Shown piece by piece: positions 32,537 through 51,221 of a DNA stretch of 64,000 bases. Every line of letters starts with the position of its first letter. The stretch's first letter is position 1. Position numbers and translations under genes: made by a program. Origin of the DNA: Amyelois transitella (Eukaryota; Arthropoda; Insecta; Lepidoptera; Pyralidae); NCBI RefSeq assembly GCF_032362555.1, contig NC_083511.1, positions 6,014,001-6,078,000 on the forward strand, read 5' to 3'. The notes under the pieces were generated by a model. It saw only the letters and a list, made by a program, of their open reading frames with translations. It was not told the DNA's origin and ran no database searches.

Positions 32537-33173
32537 TCAGTGCCTGTGTCTATATTGATGAGCGAGGTCATGGACGGTGCCTGCTGCGCTAATTACCCTG
32601 AAGCCTGTGCCCTGTAAATTAATTAAAATTCAGATACATTTAATAATGTAAAATGGAAAACAATTGACATGAGTAACAATATATTTTTGATGATATCCCA
32701 ATGAGCAAAGAGGTTCTCATGTAAATTTGTTTTGTTTTGATATAGAATATAAAACTGTTCTACCTAAATCTTTTTTGAGACTCAAATAAGTATCACCTAC
32801 ATATCACCTACATATCATTATCTACTTCAAAACATAACCTGTCATTAGGACAGCAAAAAAAAATAAGGCAAGAAAATTTTAATGATGGCGATGCCCTTTA
32901 GGGATCTGTCAGAATAATTTTATTTATTCATGAAGGTACCTTAACATAGTACCTTATCTCTTACCCATACGTAAGCCTGACCGTATGCCAGTTTCACAAT
33001 GTGATATTGTTGAAATGCACAAACATAAACATTATTGCCAATTATTTTATACTTACAATGGCTTTAGCTCCCTTTTTGAGGGAATTAACATTGACTTTAG
33101 GTGCGGCTTCACAAGCGCCAAATAATAAGGCCACTACTGCCAATACTGTCAAAAACAAGGTATAGATTTTCAT
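32537..33173 (-). CDS. Moricin-like peptide, Galleria-type (63 aa)
   Basis: Exon 1 is 33057-33173 (39 codons) and exon 2 is 32537-32611 (24 codons plus TGA), with a phase-0 intron. Signal peptide MKIYTLFLTVLAVVALLFGA; mature part APKVNVNSLKKGAKAI joined to GTGFRVISAAGTVHDLAHQY and RHRH. The KVNVN...KKG.KAIG.GF.VISAAGT.HD pattern is very close to the moricin-like peptides of Galleria, so it links the classical gene to the Trp-containing subfamily to the right. TATA-like TTTATAAA at 33267-33274. It forms a head-to-head pair with the plus-strand gene at 34014, 840 bases between start codons. Confidence 0.92.
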
Positions 33174-33922
33174 CTTTAAGATATTGTATTGTCTAAAAAG
33201 GCAAAAATATGTATGTGTGTTCTTCGAAGTCCACAACAGGAGTAACTTCTGACACTTCAAACTGCCTTTATAAAGACCGATTATTATGTTCAGTTTTGTG
33301 CTCTTGCGTTTCCCAATTGGGATTCTCCAACTTATATTATAGCAAATGAATTTTACTCAGAACGTGATGAACCGGCGTTTTCCTCTATAAAAACTATGTG
33401 TTGGAAGTTATTGCCAATGCGTCATGATTTATGTTACTGCGACGTATCGCTGGCCTTTGTTTGATCGCAAATATTTTGATTGATCGATAGACCTACCAAT
33501 TTTAGTAAGTAAAATGTATTGTCAAAAAAAAAATATAACAGTTTTAAAGTTTAACAGAATTTAAAATAAAATGCTTTATTCTGAAATAAAAGACAATTTT
33601 GGTTTTTACTCCTGAAATCAATTTTATTACTTAAATGTTATACTAACATAAAAATGTCTTAAAATGTTTTACATTTTTTTTTAATCAATTAGAAAATTAT
33701 AATAAAAAAATTAGAATCTAAATTAAAAAATTACGTACGTATCGTGTTTTAAATTGATAACATCTAAAAATAACCAATACATACCTCACAGAAGCAGATA
33801 TTCTATTTTGGAAACATTGATATAGGTTAAGTATTACCACGCAAACTTATTTTCCTTCATATGAATAGGGCAATTGGGTTTCGTCCTGGAGAAACCCATA
33901 CATCTCCGTTACAAGTAAACTT

Positions 33923-33970
33923 CATATAAATAAAGCAAGGGACTCGCTTCTGGACATTAACACTTGAATT
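33923..33970 (+). promoter_or_regulatory. Core promoter of the 34.0-kb moricin-like gene
   Basis: TATAAATA lies at 33925-33932 and the initiator-like tctggacattaacacttga at 33949-33967. This sequence is conserved with little change in front of the other cluster members. Confidence 0.65.
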
Positions 33971-34013
33971 CCCTTGTTGTTGAAACCTCCTACATCCTCC
34001 TTCGCCATATAAA

Positions 34014-34570
34014 ATGAAACTGACTGGATTATTTTTCATGGTAATAACGGTGTTCACACTGTTCATTAGTGGAGGAGAAGCTGCTCCGAAGATAAATGTC
34101 AAAGGACTAAAGAAAGGCGCCAAGGCGATCGTAAGTACCATTACATTTTTCTCGCATTTATTTATACAATCATTGTAAAAAAAATAAGGGTCGAATCACA
34201 ATTTACACTGATTGAATTCGTCACTAAGTACGAGTAATTCAATTATGAGTTATCAACGGTATTAAAATTTTATAATAAGTTCATCTATTCATATCTATAG
34301 GTATTGATAAACATCAAAAAATTCTAACAAATACCAGACTTACACAATCCAGTCACAGTATAAAAAATTTATATAGAGAGCCCAAAAAGGCGAGAACGCA
34401 ACCGGGACTGACGGCAAGACTGATCATTTTTCACCAAACTCATATTTGGCTAAGGAAATTTTTCATTTGTTTTAATGCTTTCGTTATACTTATTTCAGGG
34501 TAAAGGATTATCGTTTGTGGGTGCCGCCGGTACAGCACACGAACTATGGCAACAGCACCGACAGGGCTAA
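34014..34570 (+). CDS. Moricin-like peptide, Trp-type, HRQG ending (62 aa)
   Basis: Exon 1 is 34014-34130 (39 codons, donor gtaagt) and exon 2 is 34499-34570 (23 codons plus TAA, acceptor ttatttcag), phase 0. Signal peptide MKLTGLFFMVITVFTLFISG, then GEAAP; mature KINVKGLKKGAKAI joined to GKGLSFVGAAGTAHELWQQ and HRQG. The GAAGTAHE segment is shared with Galleria moricins. The peptide ends in a Trp/Gln/Gly segment instead of the usual basic tail. The intron contains a SINE body fragment (about 34340-34420). The ATG is the first after the conserved initiator, and its context AAAATG suits an insect start. Confidence 0.93.
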
Positions 34571-34892
34571 TCTACTCGTATTATATCTAAGCGCAGAAAC
34601 CTGAATTATGATGGATTTATTTGAATTTCACCTATACAATTATTACCAGTTGTATTTAATAGTTGTAGATCCCTTTCATTGTTACTTTACATTTATTTAA
34701 CATCACCATATTCACCTAAACCCAAGTGTTCCTAAGTACCTATATTATAAAATAAAGATTGAATTATAAGAAATTACCTAACTGACTATGTATTATTTTT
34801 GATCACAAATTTTATACTTTGACATCACTATAACCCACATTTATAAAACGATATAGTTACATTAAGCAGACTAGTTTAATACTAATGAGATA

Positions 34893-34975
34893 GATGGGAT
34901 TCAAACCGGTGCCCTTATGCGCAACCGCGTTTTAACCAGGTACGTTACCCATTCGACCAACGACGCTATTTATCC
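34893..34975 (-). repeat. tRNA-like SINE head
   Basis: In minus orientation, GTTGGTCGAATGGGTAACG looks like an A box and GGTTTGAATCCC like a B box. Between them is the gttgcgcataagggcac block that also occurs in the SINE at 10935-11310. The acceptor-stem ends do not pair as a functional tRNA should, so I treat it as SINE-derived rather than a tRNA gene. Confidence 0.6.
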
Positions 34976-36447
34976 CAAATAATTATACTCACATTATACT
35001 CTTATAAAATATACGCAATAGACAACATAATCAAATACCATATCTTTTATAATTTACATTCTATGACCTTATAAATTATGCCAATATTGCCTCCTATACG
35101 AAGAATCCGTGCGCGCGTAATCGGGCCGCTGGGAAAGTATCTAAATAAATTCCTCGCTATGCCGCGTCTGTGTATATTCACAATTAATTACCTAAATAAT
35201 ACCTACTGTAGTTCCTAATATTAATTCTGTAAACACAATAGGTATGTCCCTTTAAGTTTCCAGACTATAAATCCAAAGATTCCTTTTTTATACGCACACA
35301 TGAACTTAAATATACAAAACTTAAAATCAGCTTGCTAAAATGATGAAAATTTTACCTAATTAACTAGGATGTTCACAATCAAACCCAACTTCAAACCTTT
35401 GTCCAAAACTTGAAGTATTTTGGTGCCCAAAAAGTTTTAAAATTAATGATCATAGGTAAGTTTGGACAGATCGAGAAAGGGGGAGACAAATTGACATAGA
35501 TAAATTAAAATCTGTCTTGATATTACTGGTTAAGGAATCTCAGTGTTTGATTAATTACCGACTATTTATTTAGGGATTCCCACGGGAGAGATAGAAGGGT
35601 GAGATTACCTCAGGAGCTAGATCTTAATCAAAGTAGCAAACAATGTCTAGAAAGAAGATTTCTTCTTATTGGAAATATGCCCAAATGATTCAATGCTTAT
35701 TCATGACGAAATGATTTTGCAATTTTGTACACAAAGTCTTTTTGTTCCGGACGTTGCCATATTTGCCTATCACGAATAGTTAGCATTTATAAGAAATCTT
35801 AGTATTTTTATAAAATAATATTAATCCACTCAGCTGAACGACGTCTTTTATTATTTTCGAGACTGGTGTCTTCCCCGTAAGAGATAACATACGTGATATA
35901 TGTACTTATGTAGGTACCTATTTCCTCCAATTTCAGATTTCCTTTACCTACTTATACTGCTACCAAGGAACATAACAATTTCAGTGGCGGTCAACCCACT
36001 CCTGGTACATTATCATGTTCATAGGCGAATCCAGGGCTTCTCTCCTAAGAAAACACAACCGGGACAAACGCCAGGAGAATCCCAGTAAATTTCTTCCTGT
36101 TGGAATTCCTGGAAACTTCTCTTAACTACTTAGGGAATCTACATGAGTAATATCATGTCTCTAGAACCAGCGATTTAGGCTGTGCGTTAATATGTTATAT
36201 GTGTTGATATTAACCGTTTTGCCAACTGTTAATCCACGCGAGTTGCGTCTTAATTTTTTAGGTGATAGGTGTTCAAATCTGTGAGAGATTTTATACATCA
36301 TAATAAAACTGTAAATCTAGTATTAAAAATATATTTTTACTCTATTTACGCAGAATTTACATCTAAAAACTGTTACAATAAATATTTGATTAATTATTTT
36401 TATGACTTTAAATAAATGCTACATATTTTTGGAAAATAGATTGTAGA
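34976..36447. other. Intergenic between convergent moricin-like genes
   Basis: Contains an RTE short-element fragment (about 35825-35915) and a SINE body fragment (about 36000-36090, caaccgggacaaacgccagg). No coding region is supported. Confidence 0.5.
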
Positions 36448-36949
36448 TTAGCCTTGTCGGTGTTGTTGCCACAACTCGTGAGCAGTACCGGCGGCACCCA
36501 CGACCGAGAGTCCTTTTCCCTGAAAAAAAGGAATAAATGAATGTATCAGATGCACCGGGACAAGATTCTTATATTTCATACATTAAAAAATGCATTAAAA
36601 AATCAACAAATGAATAATCCTTGATGAAATAACCCTAGTTTTTCACTTACTATCGTAGGAACAAACAAACCCTTGTTTTGTAAAATTCAAACAAATTGTC
36701 AATCATCTAATATCTCATCGGGCCTGTAGATTTTATTTAAATCGATGTGATAACCATCGATTTCCCGCTCTTCGATATCAATAACTGGACTTTTTAGTTA
36801 GAAAACCTTTTGTTTTTAAAATTTTTACTTACAACAGCTTTTGCCCCCTTCTTAAGAGCCTTGACATTGACCTTGGGCTCGGCCTGCCCTCCACTGAGGA
36901 GCAGGGCGAACACCGCCACCACCATCAGAAAGAGCCCAGTCAGCTTCAT
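36448..36949 (-). CDS. Moricin-like peptide, Trp-type, HRQG ending (62 aa)
   Basis: Exon 1 is 36833-36949 and exon 2 is 36448-36519; phase-0 intron with donor gtaagt. Precursor: MKLTGLFLMVVAVFALLLSG signal, GQAEP, then KVNVKALKKGAKAV joined to GKGLSVVGAAGTAHELWQQ and HRQG. It is convergent with the HRQG-type gene at 34014-34570, so these two same-type genes lie tail to tail. Promoter in sense: TATAAATA at 37024-37017 and ctggacattcacacttga at 36999-36982. An EP dipeptide follows the predicted signal cleavage site, where AP occurs in several paralogues; either could be trimmed by a dipeptidyl peptidase as in other moricins (inference). Confidence 0.93.
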
Positions 36950-36981
36950 GTTGTATGTATGGAGTCTTCACCACAGGGTAA

Positions 36982-37024
36982 TCAAGTGTGAATGTCCAGA
37001 AAGAAATCCTAGCTTTTATTTATA
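36982..37024 (-). promoter_or_regulatory. Core promoter of the 36.9-kb moricin-like gene
   Basis: TATAAATA and, about 25 bases downstream, the conserved ctggacattcacacttga element, in minus orientation. Confidence 0.65.
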
Positions 37025-37429
37025 CGAAGCCACTGAAATCTGCGTGTCATCAATCATTTAGGTTTCTTAAGCGCGAAACAAAATTTCCTCTTACGTACAA
37101 AATAATTTTATTTGATTCACGTAAAGGGAATACCTACGTATCACAATTATTTATGCGTCAAAATTTTACTAAGATTGAAGACTGTTTACTTATGTGTAAT
37201 TCTGTGGTTACCTCTTTTCCCATGAACAACGTTAGAGGCAACCAAATGTATAACCCTTCAATACAATTCTCCAAGTTCAACCAAATATGTTGCTTGTGAT
37301 GAAACACAAATGCCAAGAGATATGGTGAATTGGGAGGCATTTGGAACACCCCCTTATCTGTTGTCTTTCCAATGTTGAACCACCAGACAGCTACTCCACA
37401 GAACCCGACAGAAAAAAGTTATGTATCTA

Positions 37430-37570
37430 AATATATTAACTGAAACTCTTAATATATTTTAATATATTAACTGAAACTCTTAATATATTTTAATATATTA
37501 ACTGAAACTGTTAATATATCAAAATATATTAACTTTTTCTGTTAAAAAATTTATACATCTAAATATATTA
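37430..37570. repeat. 31-bp AT-rich tandem repeat with palindromic unit
   Basis: The unit tgaaactcttaatatatttt plus aatatattaac recurs at 37441, 37472 and 37503, spacing 31, with two decayed partial units after. Each unit brackets a short core (ctgaaactc) with AATATATTAA and TTAATATATT, so every unit is itself an inverted repeat. It lies between the divergent promoters at 36.98 and 38.6 kb. Confidence 0.8.
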
Positions 37571-38081
37571 ACATTTTCTCTCTGTTGTTCTTACGAACAA
37601 TTATGATTTTCTCATATTTATAATTAGAATTATGAATAATATTACGTAATTATAGTTTAAAAACTTTAGTTTTTAAACTTATTTCTTTCTTTAAAAAAAA
37701 GGTTTTGCTCTATCAACGACCTGAATATACTATAAGACGTTGGAGTATAGGTTACCTAAAATTTCTACTAAAATACTTTAAAATATTGTTTTTATTATGT
37801 TCATCTTTTAACATTAAATATTATTTGTTACTTTGTTTCTTTATCTGTATTTAAATGAGAGTTTCCCAAAAGAACAACAACTTTAATTAATATCGTAAGG
37901 TTGTTTATTATCATCACATTTTCTGATACTCCATACAATTAAAGCAAAAAGTCATATTAACGCATTATTTTAAAGCGATTATAATGTATGGATTCTTCAC
38001 GATCATCTGTGAAGAATTTATTTTATAAAATCATAATGTTGTGTCGTATTGTTAACATTCTGTTTCCTAATTTTGTTGTTA

Positions 38082-38355
38082 TACATACATACATACATAC
38101 ATATGATCACGTCTATATCCCTTGCGGGGTAGACAGAGTCAACAGTCTTGAAAAGACTGAATGGCCACGTTCAGCTATTTGGCTTAATGATAGAACCGAG
38201 ATTCAAATAGTGACAGGTTGCTAGCCCATCGCCTAAAAGAGGAATCCTAAGTTAATAAGCCTATCCCTTAGTCGCCTTTTACGACATCCATGGGAAAGAG
38301 ATGGAGTGGTCCTATTCTTTTTTGTAATAGTGCCGGGAACCACACGGCACTGTTT
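38082..38355 (-). mobile_element. RTE-derived short element, full-length reference copy
   Basis: In sense (minus strand) it begins GTGCCGTGTGGTTCCCGGC, continues with ggaccactccatctctttcc and ttaggcgatgggctagcaac, and ends gggatatagacgtgatcata followed by a (CATA/TATG)n tail at 38083-38104. About 105 bases of the head and about 40 of the tail match the autonomous RTE at 25411-28846; the middle (about 130 bases) does not. It was inserted between two divergent moricin promoters. Confidence 0.8.
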
Positions 38356-38577
38356 GTTATGACACTTTGTTGTTATAATAAAATTATAATAAAAACGAGA
38401 CCTAAGACGCGATGTTAATCTGTCTTATCAACATAGATAACAGGAAACTTGACCATAATAAACATCTTGAAGTAATCATACAACTATGTGCTTAATTAAC
38501 ATACAGTTTTTAAGCATGCATTTTCCCATCGAAGGATTTGGCACGTGTTTAAGGAAATTTTGAATTTAAAATCTGGT

Positions 38578-38652
38578 AGGAAAACCCATATGATTCCATG
38601 CAAATTAGCTTAAATAGAGCGAGTGAAACCTTACTGGTCATTCATACTTTAG
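38578..38652 (+). promoter_or_regulatory. kappaB-like site and core promoter of the 38.7-kb gene
   Basis: aggaaaaccc at 38578-38587 (reverse complement GGGTTTTCCT, kappaB-like), TATA-like ttaaatag at 38610-38617 and initiator-like ctggtcattcatactttag at 38634-38652. The arrangement and much of the intervening sequence repeat, inverted, at 42252-42325. Confidence 0.6.
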
Positions 38653-38683
38653 TTTCTCTGTTGCGAAGATATCTCCAACAAAC

Positions 38684-39435
38684 ATGAAGCTGTCTGGTCT
38701 GTTTCTGATGGTGGTGGCGGTGTTCGCTCTGCTCTTCAGCGGAGGACAAGCAGAGCCCAAGGTCAACGTCAAAGCTCTTAAGAAGGGGGCTAAGGCTATT
38801 GTGAGTACCACCTACCTACAATGATATTTTATAAGTTTTATATGTTTTACTAGCTGTGCCCGCGACTACGTCCGCGTGGAATAGTTATTTTGGGTATTAT
38901 TGAAGCCCTCAAGGATGAATAATATTACCCATTTTTTCACATTTTCCATTATTTTTTCGCTGCTAAAAGTTGCAAAGTGATGTTATATAGCCTAAAGCCT
39001 TCCTCGATAACTGGTCTATTCAACACAAAAAGAATTTTTCAATTCGAACCAGTAATTTCTGATATTAGCGCGTTCAAACAAACAAACTCTTCAGCTTTAT
39101 AATATAAGTATAGATTTATAATTTAATTATTATATATGAGAGTGGTGCAAAACAACTTAGTACAAGAAGTCGTGGGTGAATGGATGAAATGGAGAAATAT
39201 GTGATCAGGAAGATGAACTCTGAGCTTTTTCGTTTCAGAGCCTAGGGTCCGCTTTCCTTTTCTTTCTATTTTCCAATTCATTTCGGTAGCTAACAAATAA
39301 GATAGTTTGTTATCTTATGACTTAAAAAATGGAATGTACAAATGTGTTGTTTTTTTTTTACAGGGTAAAGGCATCTCTCTGGCAGGCGCGGCTGGCACTG
39401 CGCACGAGTTGTGGCAGCAACGACACAATGGTTGA
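38684..39435 (+). CDS. Moricin-like peptide, Trp-type, RHNG ending (62 aa)
   Basis: Exon 1 is 38684-38800 (donor gtgagt) and exon 2 is 39364-39435, phase 0. Precursor: MKLSGLFLMVVAVFALLFSG, GQAEP, KVNVKALKKGAKAI joined to GKGISLAGAAGTAHELWQQ and RHNG. The intron carries a dispersed repeat (38850-39115) that begins actagctgtgcccgcgac. Exon 1 differs from that of the minus-strand gene at 45860 by a single base over 117, while the upstream region is closest to the gene at 42211; this gene is therefore a mosaic of its paralogues. Confidence 0.93.
38850..39115. repeat. Dispersed repeat (ctgtgcccgcgac family)
   Basis: Begins actagctgtgcccgcgacta and ends ataatataagtatagat. A second full copy with the same ends is at 57226-57482, and starts only are seen near 50684 and 53968. 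It is non-coding, with the termini of a widespread lepidopteran interspersed element. Both full copies are on the same strand. Confidence 0.75.
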
Positions 39436-41746
39436 TTTAGTTTTATAATGTGTAATACTAACTGTGATTTCCTTTATTTATTAACTTTATTTATACTTTC
39501 CAAAGAAATAAAATAAATTATACGGTATGCAAAAATAGTCAAAAGCTTTTTCTTTTAATGTTTAAGAGCTGGCTCTTCTCAGACAATTTAGGGGAACTAC
39601 GTGAATAAAACATTATTTTGTCTTACAAACTTAATAAAGTTTACAAACTACTAAAGAAAAATCTCACTCAACAGCCCAAAAATAATTGGTGATTCTATTT
39701 GTGATCAAAAAACACCTTACTGATTTCGTCAAATCCTTTGATTGTATAAATTTTAGAGTTTACTTCAGGCCATAGAAAACGGAATAATGTGCGATAATTG
39801 AAATGCTTCATTGTACAAGTATTTAAAACTAACGTCACGACATAAAAATGCTACATTGTATTAAAAACTAATGTCACGACATTATTACCCCAGTAGATTT
39901 TTGCGCAGTTATAAAGCTTGCAAATAAATTGAGATGCAATACATTTCCAATATTCAAAAGTTTAAATATTAATAGTTAAAACCATCATTTGCGACGTTAC
40001 ATTAACCGGTACTTTAATAGTCCAATGTTAACAACTAGGCACATACTAAGAGACGCAAAAATTTTTCGTGATCCCAGAAGCATCAAAGGAGAATAATAAC
40101 TTATTTAATTACCTATATCAAAAGCTGAACGTGGCCTAGCAGTCTTTTTGAGACTGTATTGTATAGGCTCTGTCTACCCCTGAGGTCTTAAGACATAAGG
40201 ATATGGAATAAAGACGTGGTTATTATATGTGTTAAAAGAATTATTAAACTGATACAACATCCTATATCTACGATCATCGCAATCAACAAACTCCCTGGAG
40301 GTTTTACCCTTCAATTTGCGTTTTACAAGCTTTTATTTAACTTCCAACGTATATAACTATGTTTGTTCGGATTGAATCTTGAAAGATACCTTCAACCAAT
40401 TGAGCTGTATTTTACTTACATACTTATATAAACATCTTTATCTCTTACGGAGCAACAGCGCCAGCAATTTGAAATGACGTGTTCTGCTGTGTAATTGAGA
40501 TTCACTAGTTCTACATTCATTCGTGTTTTTTTATTGTAGACAATGTGCATTCGTCCATGATTTAGATTTAAGATATATATAATGTAAATTGTCGTCCGGT
40601 GAAAATGCTGCAGTGTAGTTTGTTCCGCTGCTTCTTCTACACATGCGCTTTAGAAGCGGTAGTAGTTATAATTAGATTTAAGTGATGTGACGTCAACAAG
40701 TGATACCTTGTATCCAATTTTGAATATAAATTTATTCTATTCACATAGGTTGCTAGCCAATCGCTTGTATAAAAATAATGTGGGGCGGTTGTTTCTCTTC
40801 CCGTGCAATTTGTAAAATTGAATCAAGGGAAAGGCTTAGCTGAAATTTTAAATATACCGTGTTTATATAATGCCTGATTATTTACTGAAAATTCAGGCTT
40901 CTTGTTTTATCCACAACGAAATTATAGGAGGGTCGAAAGTAGCCTGAATTGCTTCGAGAAAATGATGGTGTACGGCCGTGCCGCTTTTTTTGCTCGACTT
41001 GGCGGGGTACTGCCGTGCCCCCAGATTAAGTTGGGATTTTTATTGTCAGGCGATGTGCTAACTACCTTTCACTGTTTGAATCTCAATTCCATCATTAAAC
41101 TAGGTACACAGAACGTGATCTTAGTCATTTCGAGTGTCTAAATACTGAATTGTGTATATTTTTAAAAGGTAAGAAAATATTTTTAAAGGCAAACATACAT
41201 AAATCGCACTTGCCACTTTATAAGCATAGAATTCGGAATAATACAAGACTATAGAAAAAGTAAGTACACAGGCGTATATTTTTACAGCCGCGTGCGATGT
41301 AATACGTTGACATATAGTTTCTTTGTTCAATTGCAATATGGCACTTCTATTGCTTTATATTATTCCGATTTCTATGGCCTCAAGTAAACCACTACGGACT
41401 ATGTCTTTCTTAGTGTTTAACTAAGTATTATATACTTCTATCTGCCTAATGCGATAATTTATAAGGATGTGTGTCTATGTGTTTCTCACCTACTCTTTAA
41501 CGCAATGGCTACTAAATTTAACCCACGGATTTTCATGAAACTGCAGTTATATAGGTACTTAGATATTACAAGTTAAAATTTATACGGATTTAAGGCGGGC
41601 AAGGTTCCGGGCAACAGCTACGTGTTAAAGAAATAAAAATAAGGTATAATTACCGAATCATATAATTTATTGAATCTCTTTGAAAGTATTAATAAAGTTT
41701 ATAAATAAAAGATATCACAGTTAGTAGTGCACATTAAAAAATTAAA
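39436..41746. other. Intergenic between convergent moricin-like genes
   Basis: Holds an RTE short-element fragment (about 40125-40235) and a decayed repeat near 41460-41640. No supported coding region. Confidence 0.45.
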
Positions 41747-42211
41747 TTAACCATTGTGTCGTTGCTGCCACAACTCGTGCGCAGTGCCAGCCGCGCCCGC
41801 CAAAGAGATGCCTCTACCCTGTAACAAAAAAACAAAACATTTGTAGATTTGTGTATTGTGGGTCATGTATTTATCATGGTGAATGGAATACTTTTATTTG
41901 CAAGCTAGCAAAAATTTGGTATTTTATCTATTAGAAGAGATATAAAATAGTTAAATGTTGGAAAGCGAACTTAAGACTCCGGAACGAAATAGCTCCGGGT
42001 TCATCTTCTCGAATTCATGGTTTTGCGCTTTTTGTTTTACGCCACTCTTTATTAAAATACAAAAAAAGCAACAATTTTCATTGAATATACTTACAACCGC
42101 TTTAGCTCCCTTCTTTAGGGCTTTGACATTGACTTTAGGCTCTGCATGGCCTCCGCTGAAGAGCAGAGCGAACACGGCCATCACCATCAGAAACAGACCA
42201 GACAGCTTCAT
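41747..42211 (-). CDS. Moricin-like peptide, Trp-type, RHNG ending (62 aa)
   Basis: Exon 1 is 42095-42211 and exon 2 is 41747-41818, phase 0. Precursor: MKLSGLFLMVMAVFALLFSG, GHAEP, KVNVKALKKGAKAV joined to GRGISLAGAAGTAHELWQQ and RHNG. The second residue of exon 2 is Arg, as in the gene at 45860, where other paralogues have Lys. It lies tail to tail with the gene at 38684-39435. The two 5' flanks (38521-38640 and 42260-42390) are near-identical inverted copies, so this pair arose by an inverted duplication. A canonical kappaB-like gggatttcct is at 42316-42325. Confidence 0.93.
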
Positions 42212-42251
42212 GTTGTTTAGGAGAAATAAGAGGTCGTCTCAATAGAGAATC

Positions 42252-42325
42252 TCAAGTGTGAATGACCAGTAAGGTTTCACTCGCCCTATTTAAACCTATT
42301 TGCAAAGAATCATACGGGATTTCCT
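42252..42325 (-). promoter_or_regulatory. kappaB site and core promoter of the 42.2-kb gene
   Basis: gggatttcct at 42316-42325 fits the NF-kappaB/Rel consensus GGGRNNYYCC except the final base. TATA-like ctatttaa is at 42286-42293 and the initiator block tcaagtgtgaatgaccag at 42252-42269 (minus-sense ctggtcattcacacttga). Confidence 0.65.
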
Positions 42326-42836
42326 ACCATATTTTAAATTCAAAATTTCCTTAAGACACGTACCGAATCCTTCGATGGGAAAATGCATGCTTAAAAAATA
42401 TTTAAATTATGCATATGGTAAGTATAGTTTATTTAGATATTAATTATTGATTGTTTCCTGTTATATAAGTTAATAGATAAAACATCATTATATATTAATA
42501 GATATACTTATACATAACATTACATAGGTGTCGTGTGGTTTCCGGCACTTTAGAAAAGAATCACTCCATATCTTTCCCATGTATGTCGCAAAAGATTTTT
42601 ATAAAGCTTCATAATAAAATATCCTTCTCTTGCCGCGTACAAACTGCTTGCTTTTTATTTAATTAACATGACCTAGCAACCTGTCCCACCCACCTATGAG
42701 GCAATTAGTCTCGTGACATATGTACATGTTCCAGTCACCAAAGCCCTTTAAGTTACCGAGCATTAATAACTCGTGATCAAATCATATTGATAATTCCAAA
42801 TTTCCCGGTCTTAGAAATTTACTTGTTATTCCAAGC

Positions 42837-42918
42837 AGGAAAACCCGTACTACGATTTGTTTATGCGCAGATTGATATAAATAGAGTACGTAATAAGTTA
42901 CTGGACATTCACACTTGA
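42837..42918 (+). promoter_or_regulatory. kappaB-like site and core promoter of the 43.0-kb gene
   Basis: aggaaaaccc at 42837-42846, TATAAATA at 42876-42883 and ctggacattcacacttga at 42901-42918. The whole block is nearly identical to the inverted block in front of the gene at 49354. Confidence 0.65.
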
Positions 42919-42963
42919 TTTGTCTTGTGGTAAAGACCTCTGGTTAAACTCCGTACATACAAC

Positions 42964-43442
42964 ATGAAGCTGACTGGTCTGTTGTTCTTGGTGCTGGCGG
43001 TGTTCGCGCTGTTCATCAGTGGAGGACAAGCCGCTCCTAAAGTCAATGTCAACGGCCTGAAGAAAGGAGCTAAGGCTATTGTAAGTATCATCAATATTGT
43101 AAAATAGAATGCAGTCTTGAAATAGTATGTCATCATCGAAAGTTAGGTGCTGATAATAATATTTTACGCAGCTTCTCTTTATCACAAAAGATATCATTGG
43201 CCCACTTATCAGTTTAATGAGAACATGTTTTTAATTAAACTTGTAATAACCTAACATAACTTATTTCAATATTGGTCATACCACCCTAAGTCAAATACTA
43301 AAAAATAAATCAAAATACTTAAAATAAATTATCAAAAGATTATTGTAAATATTAATAATATTATTTATTCCAGGGTAAAGCAGTTTCCTTGGCGGGTGCG
43401 GCCGGGACAGCGCACGAGTTGTGGCAACAACGACATGGCTAA
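42964..43442 (+). CDS. Moricin-like peptide, Trp-type, RHG ending (61 aa)
   Basis: Exon 1 is 42964-43080 and exon 2 is 43374-43442, phase 0. Precursor: MKLTGLLFLVLAVFALFISG, GQAAP, KVNVNGLKKGAKAI joined to GKAVSLAGAAGTAHELWQQ and RHG. One codon is missing near the end compared with the RHNG type. It is the right-hand partner of a head-to-head pair with the gene at 42211 (752 bases between starts). The first 91 bases of exon 1 are identical to the minus-strand gene at 49354, but the last 26 bases and exon 2 are not. Confidence 0.93.
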
Positions 43443-43599: not shown

Positions 43600-43830
43600 A
43601 TTTGTATACTTACAATCACGCCTTTATCCCTTTCTGGCGACCAGCCCCTGGTTCGAATTAATGTCTATATCCCTTGTGGGGTAGACAGAGCCAACAGTTT
43701 TGAAAAGATAGAGTGGCCACTCTCAGCTACGGCTAACTGATAGAATTGAGATTCAAATAGTGATAGGTTGCTGGCTCATCGCCCACAAGAAGAATTCCAA
43801 GTTTATGAACCTTTCCCTTAGTGCCAGGTA
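43600..43830 (-). mobile_element. RTE-derived short element, decayed
   Basis: Contains atgtctatatcccttgtggg, the ttgagattcaaatagtgata block and the gccttagt end, lacking the head. A short duplication of the left part (cacgcctttatccctttctg) precedes it. Confidence 0.6.
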
Positions 43831-43926
43831 TATCTACGGCCGCACCGCACACGCACACCCGGAGTTAATGGTAAAAAAAATCATGATTCCAAAACACACA
43901 AGCAAAGTTACCTCTTTATCTTAATA

Positions 43927-43929
<3 letters not shown>

Positions 43930-43958
<29 letters not shown>
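43930..43958. repeat. (TA)n microsatellite
   Basis: An uninterrupted run of alternating T and A leads directly into the hairpin at 43953-44008. Confidence 0.9.
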
Positions 43959-43961
<3 letters not shown>

Positions 43962-44008
43962 ACGTTCATCTGTATATATGTATATATACAGATGAACGTG
44001 GGATATAT
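43953..44008. repeat. Perfect 26-bp inverted repeat, 4-base loop
   Basis: Arm 43953-43978 (contains cccacgttcatctg) pairs exactly with 43983-44008; the loop is tgta. It lies at the end of a (TA)n tract and just left of an RTE short-element head fragment (44021-44035). Confidence 0.9.
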
Positions 44009-45118
44009 CTAAAGTGCCGGTAACTACACGGCAAGAGTATTTCCAGCAATATGAGTAGTTCTAGTTTGCTCAGCCGGAAATCACACCGCTCGATTTAGCC
44101 GATTCTGTACAATTACACAGAAATTAGTGATTATGGCTCAGGGCGGGCGGTGGAATAACTTAATTAATTGCAAATGACTACCCAGTTGGTACACATAAAT
44201 ACAAAAACACGACTTTAACCCTTGCGGGGTAGACAGAGCCAAAAAGTCACATAACTTCTACATTTATATTAATTAATATAAATTGTGCAATACTAGGTTT
44301 AAACAATTCTAATTAGATTTAAAATTATAATGTGATACTAAGTAGGTACCTCTATGTATAAGTTTGTATGTCTACTAATACATATAAAAATGTTTGCAAC
44401 ACCCGAAAGGGTAAATATGAAGATCTGTTATACATAATATTTAAGACCTTGTTGTACTCATATTATGCAAATAAAAGTTTGAATTTGAATTTACTAGCTT
44501 TTATCAGTAGCTTCACGCGCGCGATTTTAGAGTCACCTTCAAAAGAATACAGCTTTATCGCAAATCCCACAGGAACTACTAGATTTTACTAGTAAAATCA
44601 TAAGGATAAAAGTTACCCTGTATTCTTCTCCAAACTCTTAATCGAAATATCAAGAAGATTGGTTCAGTAGATGAAGCGTGAAGAGGTAACAAACAAATCA
44701 GATGTCAGATCTTTTGGTTTCATGACATTGGTTGACGTCTTATAAATTACTTAAAACTAAGTTTACTGCCGCTTCCAAAGCGTCAGTGCAGATGAAGCGC
44801 TAACAGACTGCACTGCAGCTTTTTTTTTCATTAATGTCGTCTTCACAATTATTAAAACTTTGAAAACAGTGTGGACGAGAGAATACATTGTTATGGTTAA
44901 TTGATTTTTACGAAATTTTAATAAAAAATAATAAAATTTAATCATATAAAATTTTAAACGGTGATTATTTTTGACGTAACTATCAGTCACTTAAATGGGA
45001 ATGAAAAACGTGTCTAACAAACCAAGAAAATTTATTTTTATATTGCTAAAGAATAATTTACTAAAAAAATACATCGCAGAAAGAATACTCTGATCATAAG
45101 TCATCAAATAGTATAAAA

Positions 45119-45860
45119 TCAACCATTGTGTCGTTGCTGCCACAGCTCGTGCGCAGTGCCAGCCGCGCCCGCCAGAGAGATGCCTCTACCCTGTAACAAA
45201 AAGAGATTGAGATTTGACGATTTATTTTTATAAGTATGAGATAGTAACAAATTATCTTATTCGTAATTTAATCAATTTAAATAATATGTATTTATTAATT
45301 CACCTCTCCTTAACAAGAAAAAGTGAACAGCTGAACTTGGCTTATAAGTCTTGCTTATAAGACTGTTGGCTCTGTTTACCCCGCAAGGGATATAGACCTG
45401 ATTATATGTACCTATGAATGTATGTATTAGCAAGAAAATTTGTACTTAAAATCATAATAAGTAAGTACATAACAAAGTTACTTAGTACATACATACATAT
45501 AAGTAGTAATGTGTATGGCAAATCTTGAGTACGAATTTCACCAAAGTCATCGAGTAATTTGTCGAAGTGATAACGTGTCTGGTGTAATAAGTTTTTATAG
45601 TAACAAAAATTTTATAACATTTAAATCTAAACTTTTCAATACTAGAAGAAGAACATTTACTATTATGAGATACTACTTGTGAATTAAAAGTTGTGAGTAA
45701 AGTGGCCGTCTATCAAAATATCTTATGCAGTAGGTACACTTACAATAGCCTTAGCCCCCTTCTTAAGAGCTTTGACGTTGACCTTGGGCTCTGCTTGTCC
45801 TCCGCTGAAGACCAGAGCGAACACCGCCACCACCATCAGAAACAGACCAGACAGCTTCAT
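45119..45860 (-). CDS. Moricin-like peptide, Trp-type, RHNG ending (62 aa)
   Basis: Exon 1 is 45744-45860 and exon 2 is 45119-45190, phase 0. Precursor: MKLSGLFLMVVAVFALVFSG, GQAEP, KVNVKALKKGAKAI joined to GRGISLAGAAGTAHELWQQ and RHNG. Exon 1 matches the plus-strand gene at 38684 except one base (Leu to Val in the signal peptide), while exon 2 is closest to the gene at 42211. The intron holds an RTE short-element fragment (45325-45430). A kappaB-like gggatttcct is at 45961-45970. Confidence 0.92.
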
Positions 45861-45902
45861 GTTTGTTGGAGTTGAAATCAGAGGTTTTCTCAACAGAGTA
45901 AC

Positions 45903-45970
45903 TCAAGTCTGAATGTCGAATAATTTATTACTCGCCCCATTTAAATACTTTTAAATTTACGGGATTTCCT
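45903..45970 (-). promoter_or_regulatory. kappaB site and core promoter of the 45.9-kb gene
   Basis: gggatttcct at 45961-45970, TATA-like atttaaat at 45939-45946 and the initiator block tcaagtctgaatgtcga at 45903-45919. The block is more diverged than in the other genes. Confidence 0.6.
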
Positions 45971-46983
45971 ACTCGGCTTTTGATATTGAAATTTCCTTAT
46001 GACACCTGCCAGTGGCTTCGAAGAAATATTATTGGTTTGAGCAAAAATTGTTTTCTTAAAATATGTCGTCGTAATACATTTTGCTTTGCTATACGAAGTA
46101 ATATACGATACGTGAAAAAAAAAACGTGACGACCTGTCTATCAACGCACAACTGAATCACGGAATGATTATCGATTTGCATTTGGCATACTTACAAGAAT
46201 AAATATTCTAGCGTACATACACATATCAGGTCTCCTTGCGAGGTAGATAGAGCCACCAGTTCCGAAAAGACTGAAAGGTAGCATTCAGCGGAATATGGCT
46301 TAATAATGAAGTATGGAGTATAGGATATACTTATACGATTACTCTTAGTTATATCATTATCCAAATTTATAATATCTTCTTACGACTTAGGCCAAAGACA
46401 GGTTTTAGTGAAATTCTGTGGATGAAAGTCAAAGTTCAAAGAAAGAGTAAAAATGTATTTTTGTCTTCTCCCTTTTTATTTCGGTTAACTTCAGGAATAG
46501 AAAGTGAATGGTGCTGAACTTATAACAATGAGAAATGTATAATATTAGTTTTACTAAGTACTACGAGTAGCAGTCGGTTAGCTTCAGAATGACATTTTAT
46601 AAATATAACGCTTGACTTATTACATCCTAATCATTTTAAAGCATTTTTCCTTCAGACCGCATCTATAGGTAATACTAATTAAATAAGAGATGAAGAGGTT
46701 CTAATCCACAATTCCATATACCAAGCGGCTTATAACACAATACAAAGGTATGTTTTTAAAACCTTTATAAATTTATACCGTCAATATGCGAGTTATTTTT
46801 ATTTAATTAAATGAGTAAAAATCACATTATTTTTCTTCATGAGTCAGTAAATTTTCTTGTGTGAGTGAGAATGCAAAATCGCATTTCAGGAGAAACCCAA
46901 ATGTATTCCGTGGTTTTAAATGACGCTTATGATTCTTTCAAGACTCATATTTAATTTTTCCTGTAGTGAAGACTCCATACAAT

Positions 46984-47496
46984 ATGAAGTAAATTGGAAT
47001 ATTTTTTACAGTGTTGGCAGTGATCACCCTTATCTTAGTAGGGGCCAGCTGAGCTGAGCCCAGGGTCTACTTTGAGGGCCAACAAAGTTATTGTAAGTAC
47101 TACACTGAACTAAGAAATTATTTTCCACTTGCCACGATCCCCGCATACTTAGCTAGCTCTTCTCCTTCCTCCTGGCGGTAATCCATGTAACCGGGATTAC
47201 CTCTGTGGAGAAAAGCCCGGCGTGAGCATCTTGACCATGAGCCTGGATTGGGTTAGTCAGATTTTTACAGGAAGCGACTCCCATCTCATTACTGTAACTT
47301 TTGCTGGGGAACTTACCCCATATTAACTCATAAAAGCGTCATGATTACATGTCAATTCTACTGATATCCTACGATAAAACAGCACGTACCCAAAGATATA
47401 AGTATTCTATGTCTCTTGCAATGCACGTTACTTTTATAGACAGCTGAGCAAATAGAAGAAGTGGCAGGCGCAACTGGTACAAGACAGAACGGTTGA
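46984..47496 (+). pseudogene. Moricin-like pseudogene
   Basis: The position and flanks of a moricin-like gene are kept: leader gtgaagactccatacaat, ATG at 46984, donor gtaagt at 47093 and a remnant of exon 2 at about 47445-47496 containing gtggcaggcgcaactggtac and ending aacggttga. Exon 1 has a stop at codon 4 (the third codon still encodes Lys), a further in-frame stop, and totals 109 bases instead of 117, so it is frameshifted. Exon 2 is shortened, lost its GTAHELW core and its first codons read through a stop. The intron also carries an inverted SINE body fragment (about 47165-47330). It is the plus partner of the fourth head-to-head pair, with the gene at 45860. Confidence 0.85.
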
Positions 47497-47939
47497 TTTA
47501 CGTCCATAAGTATTATATTTATTTATCTACCACAGTTTCAATGATTATATTTTAGGTTTGCAATGATTTTTTTTGTACCTACTCAATAAAATATCATGGG
47601 TCTATCTATTTTCGCTACGTTAACGGGCAAAAGTACACATAGAATCTATGGGCTATCGACATAAATTAATTTCCTTTATTTTTAATATACTTATATTATA
47701 ATTTACAAAATTTATTTTACGAGCATGTAGAATAGATGTATATATACATATACTTAAGATTTAAATGGTAACGGATATCGCACATTAGGCGATTAAATTC
47801 AATCGAATTCTGCTTCCACGTTAGAGATATACATAGTGTCTTCAGAAAAATGTAGATCTATAACTAACTATTAAAACATCTGCGAAAGCTTATACCTGGC
47901 ATTTATATTTTAACAACGTTATCTACTTCTATAGGGACA

Positions 47940-48262
47940 AGAGCACATACATCTAGGTGCCACAAAAGCATACCCAAAGAGGGTTGACGTCAGGCAGGCG
48001 GCCGGTCATAAAACTAAAGCCAAAGCTTTCCAGTATGATTAGTGATAAGACAGACAGCGATAGGACTAGGGCGTACCCCCGAGGCGACGCGCAGACGCAG
48101 CACCCGGCGTCTGTGGGAAATGGATCAGGGTTGTTGCATCAAGGACGGGTAGGAGAAAGGGAGTGACCAGAGATGGCAATTGACAGAAGTAATTGGAAAA
48201 AACTAACATACTGTGCCGACCCCACGTAGAAAGTGGGATAAGGTAACGACGAAGAAGATCTA
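47940..48262 (+). mobile_element. LINE 3'-end fragment
   Basis: The block contains gcgtacccccgaggcgacgc and ends gccgaccccacgtagaaagt gggataagg with a GAAGAAGA tail, like the 3' ends of lepidopteran non-LTR elements. A short frame (47957-48166) is the remnant of its coding end. It is a different family from the RTE at 25.4 kb. Confidence 0.55.
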
Positions 48263-48378
48263 CTTCTATATTATAAGGAATAATTATGTAAATAGTTATT
48301 ACCTATAGATATTGAATATAGATATTCAAATCAATTTGTTATTTATTTATTGTATATTAAATTAAATGAAACTTGACC

Positions 48379-48421
48379 TATAAAATAAGATTAAAGTAGG
48401 GTACTTTAATCTTATTTTATA
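48379..48421. repeat. Perfect 20-bp inverted repeat, 3-base loop
   Basis: Arm 48379-48398 (tataaaataagattaaagta) pairs exactly with 48402-48421; the loop is ggg. Confidence 0.9.
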
Positions 48422-48839
48422 CTGATTCATATACATATATTAAATTACTTCTTTTTATATTGAGTGAATATGTTCTACGGTTTACATCTTTCTCAATGAC
48501 AATATTACCTATTTTATTGTGGGTTTGTATTTACTTAGCTTTTTGTAAAAATTCACATAAGAATTTATGTGGTTTGGTTTCATTATTTTCCAGCAACTGA
48601 ATATATTTAACTAAAAATTAAATTCAAACGAAATTATCGTATGAATTGAATTTTTGTAATATCATGTATATACCTTTAATACAAAATAAAGAATTTGAGT
48701 CCGATTAACAACGAACGGGAGTTCAATAAAATATACTTATAAAAATAAAATAATTTATTTATCACTTTTTTTAGCAAAATAATACCCATATAAAACTTAT
48801 CTAACAAACATTATAACTTAATATTAATTGCACCGAAAT

Positions 48840-49354
48840 TTAACCGTGTCGCTGTTGCCACAATTCATGCGCTGTTCCGGCGGCGCCAGCCACGGATAAG
48901 ACTTTGCCCTGAAATAAAAAAAAATATATTAAATTAATTTTTTGTGCCGTGTGATTCCCGGCACCAATAAAAATAAGAATAAGACCACTCCATCTCTTAC
49001 CCATGGATGTCATGTGTACATAATATATTTTAATTAATCTGCTGCATATTTTTCTTTTGGAAGAGATTTATTATGAGAATATATTGAAATACTATGAAAC
49101 TCATGGGGATAAGTCCGCCATTGTACATTGTTATTTTTTTAATGTCTTTTTATGTACTCCTAAACATTTGTTATGTACAATAAAGTATTTACAAAGAAAC
49201 AAACAAACAATACTCGTCAATTATGAATGATACTTACAACAGCTTTAGCGCCCTTTTTAAGGCCATTGACATTGACTTTAGGAGCGGCTTGTCCTCCACT
49301 GATGAACAGCGCGAACACCGCCAGCACCAAGAACAACAGACCAGTCAGCTTCAT
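48840..49354 (-). CDS. Moricin-like peptide, Trp-type, RHG ending (61 aa)
   Basis: Exon 1 is 49238-49354 and exon 2 is 48840-48908, phase 0. Precursor: MKLTGLLFLVLAVFALFISG, GQAAP, KVNVNGLKKGAKAV joined to GKVLSVAGAAGTAHELWQQ and RHG. The intron contains a head fragment of the RTE short element (48945-49015). Promoter in sense: kappaB-like AGGAAAACGC at 49481-49472, TATAAATA at 49442-49435 and ctggacattcacacttga at 49417-49400. Promoter, leader and first 91 coding bases are almost the same as in the gene at 42964; the rest has diverged. Confidence 0.93.
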
Positions 49355-49399
49355 GTTGTATGTACGGAGTTTAACCAGAGGTCTACACAATAAGACAAA

Positions 49400-49481
49400 T
49401 CAAGTGTGAATGTCCAGTAACTTATTACGCACTCTATTTATATCAATTTACACATAAACAAATCGTAGTTCGCGTTTTCCT
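49400..49481 (-). promoter_or_regulatory. Core promoter of the 49.4-kb moricin-like gene
   Basis: TATAAATA and ctggacattcacacttga in minus orientation, with an upstream aggaaaacgc that is one base off the aggaaaaccc seen at 42837. Confidence 0.62.
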
Positions 49482-49784
49482 GCTTGGAATAATGTGCAAA
49501 TTCCTTAAACGGGGAAATTCAATAAGATCGATATGATATGATAATTACGTTTTTATGATCTTTAGATGAGGTTTCCTGTTTAGGACCTTACCTACTGAAA
49601 AATACGCAGTGGTCATAAAGAAATTTGGAATCTAAACAAGTTAGTACACTATTTTACAGTTTGATTTTTAAAGACCTTACATCTGATAAAAATAAATTTC
49701 TCTAAAATCATAACAATACCTCGTATGCAAAGCGAAATTTAATAATTAGAAGCAAAAATCCCCTAAATAAGCAATTACTTTATA

Positions 49785-49960
49785 CATACATATAATCACA
49801 TCTATTGGCTTATTTATAGAATTGAGATTCAAATAGTGACAGGTTGCTAGCACATCGCCCAAAAGAAATATCGCAAGTTTATAAGCTTATTTTTTAATCG
49901 ACTTTTACATCCGTGAGAAATAGACGGAGTGGTCCTATTCTTTTTTTATTGGTGAAATAC
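49785..49960 (-). mobile_element. RTE-derived short element with internal deletion
   Basis: Tail catacatataatcacatcta is directly followed by ttggcttatttatagaattg, so about 60 bases of the 3' half are missing; it ends near gtcctattctttttttattg. It lies between the two divergent promoters of the fifth pair. Confidence 0.65.
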
Positions 49961-50238
49961 AAAAAAATTCTTACGTTAGGTACTATTTGCTTTATTTAAT
50001 TTTTTCTCAACATAAACACCCACAAATTTTCAATAAGTGTTAGTTATGGGGTTTTTTAACTAAAACTTTTACGCAAACGAGTATGTAATTAAACTATTTG
50101 TCATTCAACCTAAGTAAGGAGTAACTGGATTAACCCATGCGTGAACAGGTAAAACTTAAGCTTTTATTTAAATAGAGTGTAGCGCCGTATTGCCATCAAA
50201 CTTACTTCAACTGTTGTAAAATCTCCTTTACACTCAAG

Positions 50239-51221
50239 ATGAAGCTGACTGGATTATTTTTTATGGTGCTGGCGATATTCGCGTTGTTCCTCGGCGGTGG
50301 ACAGGCTGAACCAAAGGTCAATGTAAATGCACTTAAAAAAGGGGCAAAGGCTATTGTAAGTTTTCAATTGTTTTTCATATAGAGAGTACAGGCACTTTTA
50401 TCATTTTGTGGCCTTTTAAGATGATTCAATTAAACCTACTTAAGCAGTTTCAGCAATGCTCTTTAACCCATTGTCATATTTAATACGTAGTACGTACTTA
50501 TTTCAGTTTTGTCTGCTTGACATATTTTTATGCACGTAAAGGATAACAGCACTAAAGTGCACAATAACACAAGTCATCATACTTTAATCGTCCCCTACAA
50601 TTTCTGCAGTTGGGCCTATTCTAGTAAAATCAGCGGGTCTATTCACATATATTGACAAGGCTTCATAATATTGTACTAGCAGCTGCCCGCGACTTCGTTC
50701 GTCGTTAAAATTCACCCTCTCTTTCCCTTTTCTCACAGTAAAAAGATATGCCATGCCTATGTTCTTTCTCAATGTCAACTCTATCTCTGTACCCAATTTC
50801 CTCGAAATCGGTTCAGTTTCCTCTCTATCTTTTAAATTAAGTAAAATAGAGAGAGAGGGAAGATAAGACACATAGCTTATTAGCATACAATCATTAGGTA
50901 CATATACATACACATATCACGTATTTACTCTTAATGGGTAGAAAGAGCCAACAATCTTAAGAAGCCTAAATGGCCAAGTTCAGCAGTAGGTATAGTTTCA
51001 TGGTATTTGATTTTTTAACGTTAATAGTATATTTTTACGTTATAGTTAAGTAAATAACCTCGCAAGCCTATTTTCCTCCGACTTTCACTACTTACGTCTG
51101 TCTAAGGCACTCCGGCACCATTTTTATAAATGTGCATGTTTTGTTACAGGGTAAAGGCTTATCCTTCGTGGGCGCTGCTGGCACCGCCCATGAGTTGTGG
51201 CAACAACATCGACAGGGCTGA
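50239..51221 (+). CDS. Moricin-like peptide, Trp-type, HRQG ending (62 aa)
   Basis: Exon 1 is 50239-50355 and exon 2 is 51150-51221, phase 0; the 794-base intron is the longest of the family here and holds two repeat fragments (about 50684-50830 and 50895-51000). Precursor: MKLTGLFFMVLAIFALFLGG, GQAEP, KVNVNALKKGAKAI joined to GKGLSFVGAAGTAHELWQQ and HRQG. Exon 2 encodes the same 23 residues as the gene at 34014, 17 kb away, although the DNA differs at many third positions. TATA-like atttaaatag is at 50166-50175, and a diverged initiator gccatcaaacttacttca follows. Confidence 0.93.

What the first reader, a model, noticed from the sequence alone, without database searches (positions are those of the whole stretch)
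32537..51221. Moricin-like genes alternate strictly in orientation as five head-to-head pairs
From 33.2 kb rightwards the order is -,+,-,+,-,+,-,+(pseudogene),-,+. The five divergent pairs have start-to-start gaps of about 0.75-1.7 kb, so each pair can share one regulatory region. Tail-to-tail neighbours are often the same subtype (HRQG/HRQG at 34.0 and 36.9 kb; RHNG/RHNG at 38.7 and 42.2 kb). This implies growth by successive inverted duplications rather than the simple tandem copying usual for antimicrobial-peptide clusters.
Basis: partly seen in the sequence, partly recalled or inferred. Interest (0 to 1): 0.75.

Follow-up and report, generated by a model that had tools for sequence, protein, structure and literature searches.

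The report
Alternating moricin antimicrobial-peptide gene cluster
A moth-type genome carries its moricin antimicrobial-peptide genes in one cluster in which ten neighbouring copies point alternately left and right; the copies look as if they multiplied one gene at a time, often flipped, and still trade sequence, rather than spreading as pairs that share one switch.

Summary
Ten moricin loci (nine intact, one pseudogene) at 32537-51221 alternate strictly in strand, with head-to-head ATG gaps of 753-1735 bp. All 11 PF06451 matches in the genome lie in this window.

Two supported sister pairs cross strands: g4/g5, a tail-to-tail inverted duplication, and g6/g9, not neighbours. A plus-strand clade is rejected (AU p 9e-13), so tandem copying of one divergent pair is out. 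But 2 of 4 tail-to-tail neighbours are not closest relatives, and same-subtype adjacency is not significant (p 0.12). Shared regulatory regions are not supported: promoter similarity follows single genes. Exon 1 of g4 and g7 (opposite strands, 7 kb apart) is identical at 39/39 third positions while 190 bp upstream is 67% identical, pointing to gene conversion.

Why the alternation is so strict is unresolved. A simulation shows that homologous exchange among copies cannot break an alternating array; applying that here is speculative.

The parts
32537..33173 (-). g1, divergent moricin-like gene (63 aa), two exons
34014..34570 (+). g2, moricin-like, HRQG subtype
36448..36949 (-). g3, moricin-like, HRQG subtype
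38684..39435 (+). g4, moricin-like, RHNG subtype; sister of g5 by flanks, exon 1 nearly identical to g7
41747..42211 (-). g5, moricin-like, RHNG subtype; inverted duplicate of g4
42964..43442 (+). g6, moricin-like, RHG subtype; sister of g9
45119..45860 (-). g7, moricin-like, RHNG subtype; exon 1 probably converted with g4
46984..47500 (+). g8, moricin pseudogene (in-frame stops in exon 1; degraded exon-2 remnant placed by eye at about 47441-47500)
48840..49354 (-). g9, moricin-like, RHG subtype
50239..51221 (+). g10, moricin-like, HRQG subtype
38276..39788 (+). left arm of the g4/g5 inverted duplication (outer ends of BLAST pieces; similarity interrupted, first 77 bp are the end of a SINE-like repeat)
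41359..42594 (-). right arm of the g4/g5 inverted duplication
38673..38806 (+). probable conversion tract shared with g7 (99% over 134 bp, inverted)
45738..45871 (-). probable conversion tract shared with g4
42758..43096 (+). promoter plus exon 1 shared with g9 (87% over 339 bp, inverted)
49222..49560 (-). promoter plus exon 1 shared with g6

Best explanation
This is the single moricin cluster found in a probably lepidopteran genome. It encodes ten small secreted antimicrobial-peptide precursors whose coding sequences are under purifying selection, plus one pseudogene. Each gene is a self-contained unit of two exons with its own proximal promoter. The cluster grew by repeated copying of single genes, at least once and probably several times in inverted orientation, and opposite-strand copies still exchange exon sequence by gene conversion. 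Shown: gene structures, strand order, sister relations of g4/g5 and g6/g9, promoter similarity that follows single genes, near-identity of g4 and g7 exon 1 against diverged flanks. Inferred: the peptides' activity, induction through each gene's own promoter after infection, gene conversion as the cause of the g4/g7 tract, and the cause of the strict alternation, which I take to be repeated inverted copying plus chance or a recombination bias rather than selection for shared promoters.
For: Canonical splice sites in 10 of 10 intact loci and PF06451 matches in 10 of 10. The mature part of g0 matches 5 solved sequences, all named moricin (2jr8, 1x22, 1kv4, 11tj, 11tg). All 11 genome matches are in this window. 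dN/dS 0.05-0.33 in the 24 of 28 pairs of eight genes (g2-g7, g9, g10) where dS could be computed. Flank tree: g4/g5 95/95, g6/g9 97/96; plus-strand clade rejected. g4/g5 similarity continues in the intron (z 8.4 with a transposon-like stretch left out, 7.4 with the whole intron), upstream (z 12.9, part of it a SINE-like repeat) and on the 3' side (z 13.8 over 150 bp, 8.1 over 800 bp, 3.1 for 88-400 bp); the repeat ends 332 and 317 bp before the two ATGs. g4/g7 exon 1: 116/117 identical, 39/39 third positions, against 119/178 in the upstream 190 bp (Fisher 1.5e-6). Spacer similarity follows single genes. In Manduca, a 242-bp moricin promoter with one proximal kB site and a GATA-1 site responds to Relish in reporter assays, and of five predicted kB sites only the proximal one is active (PMC4742911 passages; PMC5457402 abstract and passages).
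Against: Strand changes on the 8-gene trees are maximal (4), but 66 of 300 label shuffles also reach 4. On all sites the g4/g5 fork is unsupported in the 8-gene tree and 83/81 in the 10-gene tree. Exon 1 alone does not reject g4+g5 (AU p 0.30), and flanks reject g4+g7 only weakly (p 0.046). In a run-length test 4 of 15 pairs have p under 0.05 uncorrected: g4/g7 0.003, g5/g7 0.004, g6/g9 0.006, g4/g5 0.011; the runs of g5/g7 and g4/g5 lie in the promoter, so constraint may mimic tracts. g6/g9 introns do not align (z 0.7) although promoter and exon 1 are 90-94% alike, so that pair could be conversion rather than duplication. Removing one member of each young pair leaves two same-strand junctions in 3 of 4 combinations, so single-gene copying does not by itself predict strict alternation. 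Shuffles keep base composition only.
Confidence: 0.7

Rival explanations
1. Divergent pairs are regulatory units: each head-to-head pair shares a bidirectional control region, and selection for co-induction keeps the arrangement, as in silkmoth chorion genes.
For: Five head-to-head pairs with 753-1735 bp between ATGs. In Bombyx 21 HcA/HcB chorion pairs are strictly head-to-head, 330 nt apart, with common promoters over 90% identical (PMC4639761 passages). Head-to-head neighbours g3/g4 and g5/g6 have promoters similar to each other (z 11.0 and 12.3 over 150 bp), as have many other pairs of copies.
Against: Spacers are two to five times longer than the chorion figure; apart from SINE-like repeats and a few matches of 16-25 bp (E 0.004 or worse), spacer similarity lies next to the genes and follows single genes. 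g1/g2, g7/g8 and g9/g10 promoters are hardly or not similar to each other (z -0.5, 2.8, 1.1). TATA-like boxes sit by the gene in 9 of 11 loci, relaxed kB-like sites upstream of 7 of 11. No expression data were available, so co-regulation was not tested directly.
Confidence: 0.12
2. One inversion made a divergent pair, and the pair then multiplied in tandem by unequal crossing over.
For: It gives strict alternation with the fewest orientation events, and unequal crossing over is the published view for silkworm moricins (PMC3066212 passages).
Against: It predicts that plus-strand genes are each other's relatives; the trees reject that (AU p 9e-13 flanks, 1.6e-40 all sites), and sister pairs g4/g5 and g6/g9 cross strands.
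Confidence: 0.07
3. Alternation is a state that homologous exchange cannot leave. Exchange between same-strand copies adds or removes an even number of genes, and exchange between opposite-strand copies flips an even number, so an alternating array stays alternating while same-strand runs are whittled down.
For: Simulation: 0 of 2000 runs left alternation under homologous exchange alone. Of random mixed 10-gene arrays that still had 8 or more genes, 2.7% were alternating after 20 steps and 46% after 500, against 0.2% for random strands at n = 10. Opposite-strand copies probably do exchange sequence here (g4/g7). Five cecropin matches in the same genome lie -,-,+,-,+.
Against: It needs new single-gene copies to be rare: per step, 2% inverted copies gave 17% alternating arrays, 1% tandem plus 1% inverted 15%, 10% inverted 0.7%, 5% plus 5% 0.3%, and 2% tandem none. 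The clearest event, g4/g5, shares both flanks and looks like just such a single-gene copy. A three-step alternation-preserving route to the order of g4-g9 exists, but by my reasoning its crossover in g4 would have swapped g4's 3' flank, and that flank matches g5 (z 14.7), not g7 (z 2.3).
Confidence: 0.1
4. The strict alternation is a coincidence among loci copied in random orientation.
For: Nominal P 0.002-0.011, and the pattern was picked out after the fact; g0/g1 breaks it.
Against: Sister pairs that cross strands and a similar order in five cecropin matches suggest some bias towards inverted copies, on small numbers.
Confidence: 0.3

Closest known systems
Silkworm (Bombyx mori) moricin family, 12 genes: one moricin, three moricin-like A, eight moricin-like B (PMC3066212, passages seen)
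   Same: Same Pfam family name, clustered, expanded by duplication, with a classical copy (here g0) beside more divergent ones.
   Different: The passages attribute growth to unequal crossing over and do not mention strand order. Here opposite-strand copying and probable exchange are visible.
Silkmoth chorion locus, divergent A/B gene pairs (PMC4639761, passages seen)
   Same: Lepidopteran array of many divergent neighbours, with pseudogenes, some inverted pairs and reported gene conversion.
   Different: Chorion pairs are units with a common promoter of about 330 nt; here spacers are longer, promoters belong to single genes, and strands do not define subfamilies.
Cecropin matches of the same genome (contig C22)
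   Same: Five matches in the order -,-,+,-,+; the adjacent tail-to-tail pair L011/L010 has 82.6% inverted similarity over 201 bp.
   Different: Fewer copies; the region was not read in full because the genome server was busy, so further copies may exist.

Membership tests
Moricin (PF06451) | Profile match above Pfam's curated cut-off | tested here: met
   10 of 10 intact proteins, 70.6-87.1 bits against 27.6
Moricin (PF06451) | Signal peptide plus about 40-residue cationic mature peptide (recalled definition) | tested here: inconclusive
   Precursors of 61-67 aa with a hydrophobic start and Lys-rich part, read by eye; no signal-peptide program or charge calculation was run
Moricin (PF06451) | Antibacterial activity and induction by infection | not testable with these tools
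   No expression or activity data available
Chorion-type bidirectional gene pairs | Common promoter conserved across pairs | tested here: not met
   No two spacers match at both ends beyond the short gene-proximal promoters; the nearest case, g3/g4 against inverted g5/g6, shares 399 bp at the g4/g5 ends but 40 bp at the g3/g6 ends
Chorion-type bidirectional gene pairs | Pair is the unit of duplication, strands define subfamilies | tested here: not met
   Plus-strand clade rejected, AU p 9e-13 on flanks (8 of 10 loci)
Array grown by inverted duplication | Closest relatives on opposite strands with shared flanks | tested here: met
   g4/g5 (both flanks and intron); g6/g9 in part (about 190 bp upstream and under 190 bp downstream, no intron similarity)
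Array grown by inverted duplication | Every tail-to-tail neighbour pair is a sister pair | tested here: not met
   g6/g7 and g8/g9 are not closest relatives; g2/g3 weak

The most novel reading that the evidence does not exclude
Strict alternation is a stable end state of recombination among duplicated genes. Homologous exchange between copies can only add, remove or flip even numbers of genes in an alternating array, so alternation is locked in without selection on promoters, and opposite-strand copies keep homogenising each other by gene conversion. Insect antimicrobial-peptide clusters would then drift towards alternating strands and change copy number in steps of two.
Probability: 0.12. Interest if true: 0.65.

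Novelty: new variant of a known kind. Interest (0 to 1): 0.42.

Why it matters
Silkworm antimicrobial-peptide clusters have been explained by unequal crossing over (PMC3066212 passages). An array whose neighbours face opposite ways changes what recombination can do: exchange between opposite-strand copies flips rather than deletes, yet conversion can still spread sequence. If other Lepidoptera show the same order, this cluster gives a compact test of whether gene orientation is set by regulation, by the way copies arise, or by recombination.

Tried and rejected
Shared bidirectional promoters: rejected as the main reading. Tandem copying of one divergent pair: rejected by trees. Same-subtype adjacency of tail-to-tail neighbours as evidence: p 0.12, dropped. 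Strict kB consensus GGGRAYYYYY: 0 sites in 11 x 250 bp upstream (expected 0.13); GGGRNNYYCC: 2 (expected 0.3); only a relaxed pattern GGRNWTYYC of my own choice is enriched (10 against 1.2 expected, in 7 of 11 upstream regions), and the copies are related, so this is weak. Relatives in viral contigs: 62 pattern matches, none a relative at E 1e-3. No other lepidopteran genome could be searched: the genome tool holds no relatives of this one. Control families in the same genome: cecropin and gloverin answered; chorion PF01723, chemosensory PF03392, attacin PF03769 (asked once) and the full cecropin region did not complete because the server was busy. The three-step alternation-preserving history was checked and does not fit g4's 3' flank. 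Papers: nine searches; no listing or passage that I saw described the strand order of moricin genes. The paper that holds 'opposite direction' uses it of NF-kB sites. PMC2999431 holds only a short text here without the word moricin. Specialist papers on silkworm moricin gene structure that I recall (about 2006 and 2008) came up in no call.
Full report
What is there. Eleven moricin loci lie in the window; I call them g0 to g10. Nine intact genes and one pseudogene fill 32537-51221 in the order -,+,-,+,-,+,-,+(pseudogene g8),-,+. An eleventh, g0, a classical moricin ending in KKKKH, lies at 30120-30693 on the minus strand beside g1, also minus. The ten intact genes have two exons, canonical splice sites and precursors of 61-67 residues, and match PF06451 well above its cut-off. 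g8 has in-frame stops in exon 1 and a remnant of exon 2 that I placed by eye. The window is C7:6014001-6078000 of a 327-Mb assembly in 33 contigs (C7 is 12.2 Mb), and the 11 PF06451 matches of the whole genome fall in this window (16 first-look candidates, 16 scored). I infer a lepidopteran from the family, which is described as found only in Lepidoptera (PMC5457402 and PMC4421797 passages).

Is it more than chance? With random strands, 9 flips of 9 has P 0.002; counting g0, at least 9 of 10 has P 0.011. The pattern was selected by eye, so the real weight is lower. It is clearly not an ordinary same-strand tandem array.

How the copies are related. Gene-oriented comparisons give the highest proximal-promoter identities for g6/g9 (90%), g4/g5 (84%), g5/g7 and g4/g7 (73 and 72%) and g2/g3 (67%). 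In exon 1, g3 is nearest to its head-to-head neighbour g4 (88%); in exon 2 it is nearest to g2 (83%). Trees from flanks support g4/g5 (95/95) and g6/g9 (97/96), both on opposite strands; a plus-strand clade is rejected (AU p 9e-13 on flanks, 1.6e-40 on all sites). These are, built on 8 of the 10 loci, with the divergent g1 and the pseudogene g8 dropped; in the 10-locus trees strand changes number 5, 4, 5 and 5 for flanks, exon 1, exon 2 and all sites, and g4/g5 has 94/93 and g6/g9 95/95 on flanks. On all sites the g4/g5 fork is weaker (83/81 with 10 loci, unsupported with 8). The plus-strand group is the prediction of a rival model, but I named it after seeing pairwise similarities. The strand changes on the 8-gene tree are the maximum possible (4), yet 66 of 300 shuffles also reach 4, so that count alone is not evidence.

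The g4/g5 pair is best read as a true inverted duplication: similarity runs through the upstream region (z 12.9, partly a repeat), the intron (z 8.4, or 7.4 with the whole intron) and the 3' side (z 13.8 for 150 bp, 8.1 for 800 bp, 3.1 for 88-400 bp alone), and a SINE-like repeat ends 332 bp before the ATG of g4 and 317 bp before that of g5. The names SINE-like and transposon-like are mine, from look and copy number; no repeat library was searched. The g6/g9 pair shares about 190 bp upstream, exon 1, exon 2 (78%) and under 190 bp downstream, but no intron similarity and nothing beyond, so conversion is possible there. Of four tail-to-tail neighbour pairs, only g4/g5 is shown to be an inverted duplicate; g2/g3 is weak (no similarity beyond promoter and exons); g6/g7 and g8/g9 are not closest relatives. 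Same-subtype adjacency is 2 of 4 tail-to-tail and 0 of 5 head-to-head, p 0.12 and 0.43. The shuffles behind these z values keep base composition only.

Gene conversion. g4 and g7 lie on opposite strands 7 kb apart. Their exon 1 differs at 1 of 117 bases, with 39 of 39 third positions identical, while 190 bp upstream is 119/178 identical and 80 bp of 3' sequence 40/67. By flanks g4 belongs with g5. Fisher test of third positions against upstream: 1.5e-6. This is best read as gene conversion limited to about 134 bp. Limits: in a run-length test 4 of 15 pairs have p under 0.05 before correction (g4/g7 0.003, g5/g7 0.004, g6/g9 0.006, g4/g5 0.011), two of them with runs in the promoter; exon 1 alone does not reject g4+g5 (p 0.30) and flanks reject g4+g7 only at p 0.046.

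Regulation. The five divergent spacers were compared in both orientations. Apart from repeats and a few matches of 16-25 bp (E 0.004 or worse), similarity is gene-proximal and follows the gene: g4 upstream matches g5 upstream over 399 bp (its far end in the repeat), g6 matches g9 over 188 bp. The spacers g3/g4 and g5/g6 do mirror each other at both ends, but at the g3/g6 ends over 40 bp only. Head-to-head neighbours resemble each other in the proximal 150 bp for g3/g4 and g5/g6 (z 11.0, 12.3) but hardly or not for g1/g2, g7/g8 and g9/g10 (z -0.5, 2.8, 1.1). TATA-like boxes occur within 100 bp of the ATG in 9 of 11 loci and relaxed kB-like sites within 250 bp in 7 of 11. In Manduca a 242-bp moricin promoter with one proximal kB site and a GATA-1 site is activated by Relish in reporter assays, and only the proximal one of five predicted kB sites is active (PMC4742911 passages); forkhead sites in it also count (PMC5457402). 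So each gene appears to carry its own switch. Co-regulation by a shared chromatin domain was not tested and is not excluded.

Why alternate? Removing either member of g4/g5 and either of g6/g9 leaves same-strand neighbours in 3 of 4 combinations; only removing g5 and g6 together leaves a strictly alternating array. So single-gene copying does not explain strictness by itself. A simple argument, checked by simulation, shows that homologous exchange among copies cannot break an alternating array (0 of 2000 runs) and tends to produce one from mixed arrays, but frequent new single copies destroy it. A concrete three-step route of that kind reproduces the order of g4-g9 but conflicts with g4's 3' flank. 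Five cecropin matches of the same genome lie -,-,+,-,+ with an inverted adjacent pair, which hints at a general tendency towards inverted copying; five genes are too few to say. The three gloverin matches lie on three contigs.

Compared with what is known. Moricin families are known: 12 genes in silkworm, mostly clustered, 9 in Mythimna separata, 3 on one scaffold in Plutella. Strictly head-to-head lepidopteran arrays are known from chorion genes, but those are paired units with common promoters, a membership test failed here. I saw no account of moricin strand order in nine literature searches; the library lacks many subscription papers, so it may be in print.

Verdict. A real and somewhat unusual arrangement of a known gene family, with good evidence for inverted copying, fair evidence for opposite-strand gene conversion, no evidence for shared promoters, and an open question about why the alternation is strict.

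Noticed in passing
   Followed up: yes
38088-38352 and copies through the window: SINE-like repeat; 23 BLAST pieces in the window, 21 after I merged two split copies, 12 of them inside the cluster (29% of the window), binomial p 0.007, or 11 of 20, p 0.014, without the query copy, which came from the cluster. Inverted copies might promote inverted duplication.
   Followed up: partly
52221-53903: Asparagine synthetase (PF00733) in one uninterrupted 560-aa frame on the minus strand beside the cluster; possible synteny anchor or retrocopy.
   Followed up: no
58779-59312: Frame with protein prenyltransferase alpha repeats (PF01239), minus strand; second possible synteny anchor.
   Followed up: no
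25628-28813: Long open frame with a reverse transcriptase domain (PF00078) and an endonuclease-type match at the cut-off (PF14529), of a non-LTR retrotransposon type, left of the cluster.
   Followed up: no
L009-L013 (contig C22): Five cecropin matches in the order -,-,+,-,+, including an adjacent inverted pair; resembles the moricin pattern.
   Followed up: partly
37408-37562: Tandem 31-bp AT-rich repeat in the g3/g4 spacer.
   Followed up: no
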